Source: Daphnia pulex
Lineage: Eukaryota > Arthropoda > Branchiopoda > Diplostraca > Daphniidae
Assembly: GCF_021134715.1 (NCBI RefSeq)
Contig: NC_060018.1
Coordinates: 2,046,001 to 2,110,000, forward strand
Reading direction: 5' to 3'
DNA length: 64,000 nt
In this document: positions 23,962 through 26,900 of the stretch, in pieces
Layout: each line of letters opens with the position of its first letter
Position numbering within the stretch: position 1 is the first letter of the stretch
Notes under the pieces: generated by a model
Seen by the model: only the letters and a program-made list of their open reading frames with translations
Told to the model about the DNA's origin: nothing
The model's database searches: none
Translations under genes and position numbers: made by a program

Positions 23962-26900
23962 TTATACCAGACCGGCATCTCGTGCCATGCCATAAAAGAT
24001 CGACTCCTTATTTTCCAGTAGCTCATTTGGTGGCGCGTATTCTTTGATTTCTCCTTTGTCCAACACCATTACTCTGCGTAAAACGTTGAGTTAGCTGTTG
24101 TTGAAGGTATTGTAGTCTATAACTACTGTTATTATGTTACCTATTACTGTCCAGGATCGTGTTTAATCTGTGGGCGATGGTGATAACTGTACCCTCTTTG
24201 AATTCCTTACGAATCGTGGCCTAGAAAAACAGCGGATAAAATAAGCAGTTGCAAAAGTTTTCATAAGTTTACTGTACTTGAATTAGATCGTCAGTTTCCA
24301 AATCGACGGCAGCCGTTGCTTCATCCAGAATAAGGACTTTCGTTTTGCGGAGAAGAGCGCGAGCGAGACAAATCAACTGACGTTGACCTACACTTAAATT
24401 CTCGCCACCCTCTGAAGCTTCATGTTCTAGACCTGCTGGTAACGACTTGACGAATGTCTTCAAGTGAGCGTGCTCTAACGCAGTCCAAATATCATCATCA
24501 GAATAAGAATTGAACGGATCTAAGTTCATGCGCAACGTTCCCGAGAACAAAACAGGGTCCTATATGTGATTGTTAATCATTAGAACATTTATTCGCCTAA
24601 ATAACCTGTGCTTCATGGTACCTGAGGAATAATAGTCAACCGAGATCGCAGAGCGTGAAGCCCCAGGTCGGCAATATCCAATCCATCAATTGTTATTTTC
24701 CCAGAAGCGGCTTCGATGATACGGAACAGAGCCAATGTCAACGAGGATTTTCCTGCTCCAGTACGTCCAACGATGCCAACCTATAACAAATCGTAATGAT
24801 AATCATTTTTTTTTTTTTGCAAAAGAGAACGAGTTAAATTACCTTTTCACCACCTTGAATGTCGCAAGTAATTCCCTTGATAACTAAGTCAAGTCCTTCA
24901 CGGTAGCGAACTTCATATTTCTCAAACGAAACCTTGCCCTTGTCGGGCCATGAATTAGGTGGTTCACGTTTCCCGTGGTCCCATGAAGCTTCCTAATTTA
25001 AAAAATTTTCGCTTTTTTATAGATGTTTTTATAAAGAGTTTTAAGTGAATTCCTCATACTTGTACAGCTTCACTGTACTCCTTGATTCTCTCTACGGCCA
25101 CGATGTTCGTTTCGACCTCGGACGTCATCCGCATAAACCAGTTGAGTGTTTGTGTAATCTAGAAATGTTATCTTCAAATGTACTTTTGGTTGCGTATTTG
25201 TTTTCTCTGCTTCGTATACTTACACTAAGGGCGTAAGTGATGGACAGTCCAACATAACCGGGGTCCATAGTTCCTTTTTCTCTTTCGATAACGGCGAATA
25301 AAGAAGCGAAGAGAACCACTAAGTTACCAATAGTTTCCAAACGGATCGACAGCCATCGATTAGCAACAATACTCGGGTAATAACAAATCTGATTAAGATC
25401 CACGCGAGACTCGGATTCTTTGATAAATCGATGTTCTTGGCCATATGCTCGAATAACGGTAGCACCTAAATCAAGCAGATGCGCATTATTAGAAATATAT
25501 ATCACACATTTTCAACGTGAGTAAGGTCTATACCAGTAAGTGTTTCGCCAAAGTGTGAATAAATGGGAGATCTTGAAACAGATTCTAGACGCTTAAGTTG
25601 CCTCGATGTAGCCACATAAACATTCTGAGGGGAAAAAAAATTTAAACAAGATTAAAAGACACTGCCAATAATAAGTAAAATTTATTTAGAATTACCTGAA
25701 TCCAGTAATAGAGAACTCCAATCGGTACGGCAACAGCAAAGAAGATAGGGGTTCCGAGACCAATAACTAGTATAGTACTGATGACCTAAGAAATGCAATA
25801 AGTTTATTATTTTAAAAATGCTTTTAAGAATTATTGATGCGCATGGCTGAGAAATAATTTAAAGGGAGGATAAAGGGTGTTCACTCGAAGGATTCAATCA
25901 AATTACTTCCAATAAACAGTACAACCAGTCAACCAAGACAGCGGGAATGCGACTGTCAATAGCGTTCATATCTTGCGAGAAACGTGACATAATTCTTCCA
26001 ATAGGCACCGTCTCGAAGAAGGTCATTGGTGCATGAAGAACACCTTTTAGACAAGCCTCGTGCAAGACGCGAGATGCACGCGCCAACGCGTAATAAAGTA
26101 GTACCTCGCTGAAAGAAAACAAGGCTGCGGAACAAAAATCAATTGAAATTCAGCAAAACAGATTCGCTTAACTTCACACTTCAACTTTTCCATCGCATTA
26201 GAAAACGTAGAAATATTCATTTTGAATTTTCTTGAAATTCCCATTTCTACAAGTATAGAATATGAGTGAATCCTTCGAGTGGAGGGACATAGACCTTTTT
26301 TAAAGCAAACCTTTTCTTTAAGACCCGTTGTGATGAAATGGCAAAAGAAGAGTCTACTAGGCGCGGAAAATTTTCAAAAAAAAAAATAGTACTTGTAACG
26401 CTGTAGTGATCCAGCCACGCAAGATGAATGGCAATGTGTTGTCCAAAACATCGACATCTTTGCTGAAACGATTGAGCAGTCGACCGGTAGGAGTTGTATC
26501 GAAAAATACCATAGGCAGACGGAGGACGTCGCCAATCAGGCGGATATGCAAGGTTCTCGCGGCACGTAACGTTGCCAGGCCCAGTAGAACAGAAGCTACC
26601 ATCATCACCAAAGCTATACAACAGGGCCAAAACGTACATGAGAACTTGAACGCAACAAGTAACACAAAATTACCCCAACAACATATTGAACGCTACAAGT
26701 TGAGACAAACAGGTTTGTCACCACAACTCGAAGGATTCAAACAAACACACTTGGCATTGGGAAGTTCATGTACACAAAAAGCAACGGTAATTAAACATAA
26801 AAAGCTATTTACCTCGATAAACCTGGAGAAGTCAGAGTGCCTAGAACTAAATGCACTTACCTTGACCAATTCAACGAACATGCAAACATCCAGCAAGTAT

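What the first reader, a model, noticed from the sequence alone, without database searches (positions are those of the whole stretch)
25882..26739. Competing intronic RNA stems in the exon 22 cluster
A 15-base word at 25882-25896 recurs inverted at 26267-26281 and direct (14 bases) at 26726-26739. All three are intronic, one per intron following exons A, B and C. The middle one can base-pair with either neighbour but not both, so pairing would loop out exon B or exon C. One partner lies within 25 nt of the exon C donor, where pairing could mask it. By my estimate a 15-base match inside a 1 kb region is well below 1 in 1000 by chance, and here it occurs twice. I know of no description of this for a crustacean MRP gene.
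Basis: partly seen in the sequence, partly recalled or inferred. Interest (0 to 1): 0.8.

Follow-up and report, generated by a model that had tools for sequence, protein, structure and literature searches.

The report
Competing intron pairings choosing transporter exons
Three short matching intron sequences in an animal drug-transporter gene can pair in two mutually exclusive ways, probably helping the cell pick one of several alternative exons; two of the three are conserved in other lineages, but the mechanism itself is a known kind.

Summary
A 14/15-base word lies in three successive introns of a tandem-exon cluster (A, B, C) of an ABCC/MRP-type gene on the minus strand: direct, inverted, direct. 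One such inverted pair is not rare in this genome, but the triad is: 0 in 200 kb of background, and the only one in the window. The 14-mer occurs 4 times in 133 Mb, 3 of them here.

Database ORFs that run from these exons into the introns gave a test in other lineages. The word after exon C is present in 6 of 8 ORFs that read far enough. The word between B and C is clear in 5 of 11, ambiguous in 2 and absent in 4; two of the 5 are near-identical to the window. The same nucleotides appear in three reading frames, so the nucleic acid is conserved, not a peptide. Word 1 was seen elsewhere only in a near-identical ORF.

In silico the fold behaves as a switch, though donor masking was not supported. 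Exon lengths (221, 221, 218 nt) let only one variant keep frame. Best reading: competing-RNA-pairing control of mutually exclusive splicing, already reported for MRP genes. The unusual feature is one central arm shared by two flanking arms. No transcript data were available.

The parts
26949..27169 (-). variable exon A (221 nt; second transmembrane domain of an ABCC/MRP transporter)
   Evidence: AG/GT boundaries, reading frame and identity to B and C (31/74 and 25/74 residues); exon A joined to following exons matches human ABCC2 residues 1036-1169
26393..26613 (-). variable exon B (221 nt)
   Evidence: 30/74 residues identical to exon C
25907..26124 (-). variable exon C (218 nt)
   Evidence: ABC_membrane Pfam match of the ORF; conserved exon C in database ORFs
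25696..25785 (-). next exon downstream, presumed constitutive (90 nt)
   Evidence: frame and splice sites
26726..26739 (-). word 1, intron 1 at +210 to +223, transcript TGAATCCTTCGAGT (docking-type arm upstream of exon B)
   Evidence: seen elsewhere only in near-identical ORF P0147
26267..26281 (-). word 2, intron 2 at +112 to +126, transcript CACTCGAAGGATTCA (central shared arm)
   Evidence: conserved in P0121, P0125, P0126, P0058, P0151
25882..25896 (-). word 3, intron 3 at +11 to +25, transcript TGAATCCTTCGAGTG (docking-type arm beside the exon C donor)
   Evidence: conserved in P0010, P0037, P0150, P0058, P0149, P0151
25882..25904 (-). extended 2:3 helix, intron 3 side (23 nt, 91% complementary to 26259-26281), reaching donor position +3
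   Evidence: duplex -29.3 kcal/mol
26721..26739 (-). extended 1:2 helix, intron 1 side (19 nt, 89% complementary to 26267-26285)
   Evidence: duplex -32.8 kcal/mol
26614..26948 (-). intron 1 (335 nt)
26125..26392 (-). intron 2 (268 nt)
25786..25906 (-). intron 3 (121 nt)

Best explanation
The words are arms of competing intronic RNA helices that help choose between mutually exclusive exons. Word 2 (between B and C) pairs either with word 3 (after C) or with word 1 (before B). Pairing 2:3 loops out exon C and lies over or beside its donor, so B joins the next exon. Pairing 1:2 loops out B and leaves word 3 free, so C joins the next exon. Since A, B and C each have length 2 mod 3, only a single-variant mRNA keeps the frame the cluster uses. 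Shown: the words, their positions, frame arithmetic, triad rarity, conservation of words 2 and 3 in other lineages, and in-silico competition. Inferred: that the helices form in cells, which exon each favours, the role of word 1, donor masking, and how exon A is chosen (this triad alone does not explain it).
For: Words and topology. Not a dispersed repeat. Triad absent from 200 kb of background. Helices 1:2 (14 bp) and 2:3 (15 bp) are stronger than the best of 60 shuffles each; the other four intron pairs are not. Partition function of 1511 nt: wild type 1:2 0.994; with word 1 disrupted, 2:3 0.992; with word 2 disrupted, neither. Conservation: 6 of 8 ORFs that read at least 9 residues past the exon C donor carry word 3 (P0010, P0037, P0150 at 15/15, shuffled words as good 0/1500; P0058, P0149 at 14/15, 2/1500; P0151 at 13/15, 23/1500, or 5/1500 in the first 12 residues). 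Word 2 is 15/15 in P0121, P0125, P0126, P0058 (0/1500) and 14/15 in P0151 (3/1500). The nucleotides fall in three different frames (NPSS, IESFE, WILR; STRRIH, HSKDS, LEGF), which excludes peptide conservation. In P0058 the one forced change in word 3 can leave a G-U pair. In P0151 the terminal G-C can be read as U-A, with both sides forced to differ from the window.
Against: No transcript or structure-probing data. Near-invariance of the words gives almost no covariation; the P0151 change rests on codon back-inference, and P0151 also has one broken pair. Word 1 was seen elsewhere only in a near-identical ORF. Equilibrium folding puts 1:2 at 0.994, so B would nearly always be looped out unless a factor or kinetics intervenes; the exon C donor behaved opposite to masking. 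An anchor-free test of pairing between back-translated introns had no power. P0152 and P0153 lack word 3; P0140, P0142, P0145 and P0154 read far enough but lack word 2; P0132 and P0137 are ambiguous.
Confidence: 0.66

Rival explanations
1. Only the 2:3 helix is functional (an old B/C switch with one docking site downstream of the cluster and one selector); word 1 is a recent copy of word 3 or a fortuitous competitor.
For: Words 2 and 3 are conserved beyond near-identical lineages, while word 1 is not shown to be. Words 1 and 3 match over 20 nt at 19/20, which suggests copying.
Against: Predicted 1:2 is stronger than 2:3 and takes over the fold, so word 1 should disturb a 2:3 switch unless tolerated. 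Lack of data on word 1 is a sampling limit: the exon B ORFs measured read at most 31 residues upstream of exon B, short of word 1.
Confidence: 0.2
2. The words are sequence-specific protein-binding sites (a splicing regulator, or DNA-level), and complementarity is incidental.
For: The sequence is nearly invariant across the ORFs that carry it, which is also what a protein site would show.
Against: A single-stranded RNA-binding site would be expected in the same orientation; word 2 is the exact reverse complement. The 14-mer is at background frequency in the rest of the genome. The P0058 change can keep pairing as G-U. A double-stranded DNA site is not excluded by orientation.
Confidence: 0.09
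3. Chance inverted repeats without function.
For: Inverted pairs of at least 14 nt within 1 kb occur in 5 of 20 background stretches, and elsewhere in the window.
Against: Triad absent in 200 kb; conservation in other ORFs at matching intron positions.
Confidence: 0.05

Closest known systems
Competing RNA pairings in MRP1 exon clusters (Yue et al. 2017 RNA Biol 14:1399; paper not held, seen only as a citation and as described in passages of PMC6071210)
   Same: Same gene family, tandem exon cluster, intronic competing pairings. PMC6071210 says insect MRP1 uses such pairing, that hymenopteran MRP uses several intronic stems, and that a bidirectional model applies to Drosophila MRP1.
   Different: PMC6071210 places the MRP1 docking site downstream of the cluster. 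Here one central arm competes for two flanking near-identical arms. Whether Yue et al. include Daphnia or another crustacean could not be checked.
Bidirectional pairing in srp and in Dscam exon 4 (bee) and exon 9 (silkworm) (Yue et al. 2016, via passages of PMC6071210; beetle exon 9 in passages of PMC8042237)
   Same: Upstream and downstream pairings compete over variable exons.
   Different: In srp the two pairs do not compete for a common site (PMC6071210); here they share word 2.
14-3-3zeta, Mhc, and Dscam exons 4 and 9 docking/selector systems (Yang et al. 2011, via passages of PMC6071210)
   Same: A docking-type arm just downstream of the last variable exon (word 3) and a selector downstream of the preceding variant (word 2).
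   Different: A canonical selector after exon A would resemble word 2; instead intron 1 carries a copy of the docking word.

Membership tests
Competing-RNA-structure mutually exclusive splicing | Tandem homologous exons of matching phase | tested here: met
   221/221/218 nt, all 2 mod 3; 25-31 of 74 residues identical
Competing-RNA-structure mutually exclusive splicing | Intronic elements able to form mutually exclusive helices | tested here: met
   14 and 15 bp helices sharing word 2
Competing-RNA-structure mutually exclusive splicing | Elements conserved within a clade | tested here: met
   Words 2 and 3 only: word 3 in 6 of 8 and word 2 in 5 of 11 ORFs that read far enough. Word 1 is open for lack of reads
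Competing-RNA-structure mutually exclusive splicing | Compensatory changes preserving pairs | tested here: inconclusive
   One change that can keep pairing as G-U (P0058), one possible two-sided change plus one broken pair (P0151), by codon back-inference only
Competing-RNA-structure mutually exclusive splicing | Exactly one variant in mature mRNA | not testable with these tools
   No transcripts available; frame arithmetic is consistent
Competing-RNA-structure mutually exclusive splicing | Splicing altered by disrupting pairing and restored by re-pairing | not testable with these tools
   Needs minigenes
Single docking site at one end of the cluster with a selector per exon (Dscam exon 6 or 14-3-3 type) | Every variable exon has a selector complementary to one terminal docking site | tested here: not met
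   Word 1 after exon A is identical, not complementary, to word 3; 1:3 duplex only -9.0 kcal/mol
ABCC/MRP transporter gene | Second transmembrane domain homologous to ABCC1/ABCC2 | tested here: met
   ABCC2 E 1.6e-40, MRP1 E 3.9e-34; ABC_membrane and ABC_tran

The most novel reading that the evidence does not exclude
A previously undescribed topology of bidirectional control: one selector between two variable exons, flanked by two near-identical docking words, so a single 15-nt arm directly arbitrates between looping out B and looping out C in a (probably crustacean) MRP gene, with the downstream helix reaching into the donor of the exon it excludes.
Probability: 0.3. Interest if true: 0.6.

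Novelty: new variant of a known kind. Interest (0 to 1): 0.45.

Why it matters
If true, this is a compact (three words, three exons, about 1.5 kb) natural RNA switch whose two states share one arm. That makes the 'competition' model of mutually exclusive splicing directly testable in a short minigene. It would also extend RNA-pairing control of MRP exon choice to a (probably cladoceran) crustacean, where variants of a detoxification transporter may matter for tolerance to pollutants. The ORF-through-intron trick used here is a general way to get intron conservation from protein databases.

Tried and rejected
Dispersed repeat: rejected. Decayed extra exon in intron 1 that would explain word 1: local alignments of exons A, B, C to the four introns do not exceed the 95th of 100 shuffles. 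Further helices that would select exon A: the other four intron pairs do not exceed their shuffles. Paralogues as comparison: one search found 8 matches to exon B, 3 of them the cluster itself and 5 elsewhere (C10, C9, C7, and two on C11 about 8 kb apart); I did not study their introns, and the 14-mer is absent from those contigs. Viral contigs: 22 pattern matches, none a relative. Ab initio pairing test between back-translated introns: observed scores reached by 462 to 998 of 1000 shuffles in 5 cases, so no power. P0132 and P0137 as word 2 carriers: 13/15, but 23 and 21 of 229 other 15-mers of the same intron do as well, so not counted. Donor masking by simple folding: not supported. A translation in a frame of no use was made. 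Literature: 7 searches of open PMC (I saw listings, and passages of 5 papers) showed no crustacean MRP case; Yue et al. 2017 is not held, so this is no proof of absence. I also lowered the novel-case odds from 0.35 to 0.3, because PMC6071210 says a bidirectional model applies to Drosophila MRP1.

Full report
Observation. The gene is on the minus strand and encodes an ABCC/MRP-type transporter: exon A joined to following exons matches human ABCC2 (E 1.6e-40) and MRP1 (E 3.9e-34), and the three ORFs scanned match ABC_tran (two) and ABC_membrane (one). In transcript order the cluster is exon A 27169-26949 (221 nt), intron 1 (335 nt), exon B 26613-26393 (221), intron 2 (268), exon C 26124-25907 (218), intron 3 (121), next exon 25785-25696. 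All three variants are 2 mod 3 in length, so only an mRNA with exactly one of them keeps the frame from the preceding exon into the next. A and B share 31 of 74 residues, B and C 30, A and C 25. I did not verify the exon number 22.

Chance. The 14-mer is found 4 times in 133 Mb, 3 of them here, with 1.16 expected, so it is not a dispersed repeat. The fourth copy, on C5, has no inverted partner of at least 10 nt within its 3 kb. A direct-inverted-direct triad of 12-mers occurs nowhere in the 200 kb and only here in the window. For the introns concerned the analytic expectations are 1.5e-4 (2:3), 4.7e-4 (1:2 anywhere) and 5.3e-10 for the joint event if the two arise independently. They may not, since words 1 and 3 share 19 of 20 bases and one may be a copy of the other.

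Pairing. The 2:3 helix is 15 bp (23 nt at 91% with flanks) and 1:2 is 14 bp (19 nt at 89%), with duplex energies of -29.3 and -32.8 kcal/mol; 1:3 gives only -9.0. As gapless helices (-28.6 and -26.5) both are stronger than the best of 60 dinucleotide-shuffled intron pairs (-21.4 and -21.8), while the other four intron pairs do not exceed their shuffles. A partition function over 1511 nt gives 1:2 a probability of 0.994 and 2:3 zero. Replacing word 1 by its complement gives 2:3 0.992, and replacing word 2 abolishes both. So the three words behave as a two-state switch in silico. Two results go against a simple picture. At equilibrium 1:2 nearly always wins. And the exon C donor is mostly paired when word 3 is free and if anything more open when 2:3 forms, so donor masking is not supported by folding.

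Conservation. No other eukaryotic genome could be searched for DNA. However, the protein collection holds ORFs, evidently predicted mechanically on raw contigs, and many run from these exons into the flanking introns. After exon C (window ...[14 protein letters not shown]) the reads are P0010 [12 protein letters not shown]0037 and P0150 VIWVNPSSEF, P0058 VNFDWILRV, P0149 VNLIESFEL and P0151 VMNPSC. Scored by codon compatibility with the 15-nt word, these are 15, 15 (both), 14, 14 and 13 of 15; shuffled words did as well in 0, 0, 0, 2, 2 and 23 of 1500. P0152 and P0153 do not carry it, giving 6 of 8 ORFs that read at least 9 residues past the donor; P0148 and P0154 end too early.

For word 2, 25 reads downstream of exon B and 6 upstream of exon C-like exons were examined, of which 11 are long enough to reach the place it has in the window. 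It is 15/15 in P0121 (STRRIH), P0125 (LEGF), P0126 (STRRIH) and P0058 (HSKDS), and 14/15 in P0151 (KLEGFI). P0132 and P0137 are ambiguous at 13/15. P0140, P0142, P0145 and P0154 lack it. So 5 of 11 are clear. P0125 and P0126 are near-identical to the window over exon B (99%) and add little; of the four that lack the word, the three with an exon B figure are more diverged in the exon (69% for P0140 and P0142, 71% for P0145). As a control, 15-mers of the same window intron that start more than 8 nt away and reach the word's score number 0 of 229 (P0121, P0058) and 1 of 229 (P0151) for word 2, and 0 to 2 of 88 for word 3; the top ones printed for P0151, P0010 and P0149 still overlap the word in part. 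For P0132 and P0137 the numbers are 23 and 21 of 229.

Limits of the sample. One search found 527 proteins and listed 120, one search listed 27 and one search listed 111. I read 50 sequences (13, 27, 10); all 252 listed proteins were scanned for six frame motifs. Because the same nucleotides appear in three frames, conservation is of the nucleic acid.

In P0058 the only forced change can leave a G-U pair. In P0151 position 15 is forced to differ on both sides and can be U-A, the base before the word can pair where the window cannot, and one internal pair is broken. These are inferences from codons, not read DNA. Word 3 starts at +11, +11, +11, +13, +12 and +5 from the donor in P0010, P0037, P0150, P0058, P0149 and P0151, so closeness to the donor is kept. 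Word 1 was seen elsewhere only in P0147, which is near-identical to the window; the other exon B ORFs measured read at most 31 residues upstream of exon B, too short to reach it.

Mechanism. The best-supported model is competing RNA pairing: 2:3 loops out C and leaves B to join the next exon; 1:2 loops out B and frees C. Exon A needs both B and C skipped, and this triad does not explain that. By eye A has the most consensus-like donor (GTATGT), so it may be a default or governed by something not found here. Because word 1 is transcribed before word 2, and word 3 last, 1:2 has the kinetic advantage; a helicase or binding protein would have to release it to select B (inference).

Relation to known systems. 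PMC6071210 (passages) describes docking/selector and bidirectional pairing, says insect MRP1 uses it with docking downstream of the cluster, says hymenopteran MRP uses several intronic stems and that a bidirectional model applies to Drosophila MRP1, and proposes that such arms arise by duplication. PMC8042237 (passages) reports clade-specific docking sites with bidirectional pairing in beetle Dscam1. PMC9741552 (passages) notes unrelated exon duplications in MRP orthologues of fly and worm. The kind is therefore known, and known in this gene family. What differs is that one central arm is shared by two flanking near-identical arms, and that the animal group is, within the library searched, undescribed for MRP. 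The primary paper (Yue et al. 2017) could not be read, so prior description of a Daphnia cluster cannot be excluded.

Noticed in passing
window 29587-29733 and 29975-30121, minus strand: A second tandem exon pair in the same gene: two 147-nt homologous segments ([27 protein letters not shown]... and [27 protein letters not shown]...). The upstream copy has no GT donor at the homologous place and may be decaying; no exact inverted pair longer than 11 nt was found in 29200-30500.
   Followed up: partly
L004 1501-1514 (G000 C5:5049232-5049245): The only other genomic copy of the 14-mer. Its 3' flank matches word 1 for four more bases (ACTCGAAGGATTCAAACA); no inverted partner of at least 10 nt in its 3 kb.
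   Followed up: partly
window 21158-21264: A 30-nt perfect inverted repeat with a loop of about 47 nt, outside the transporter exons studied.
   Followed up: no
P0137 (ORF with exon B-like sequence): ELKGFS lies at about +113 after the exon B donor, the position of word 2, 13/15 compatible; could be a remote word 2 but is not significant against other 15-mers.
   Followed up: partly
window 26361-26963, plus strand: A 200-codon antisense open frame runs across exon B and the word 1 region; probably fortuitous.
   Followed up: no
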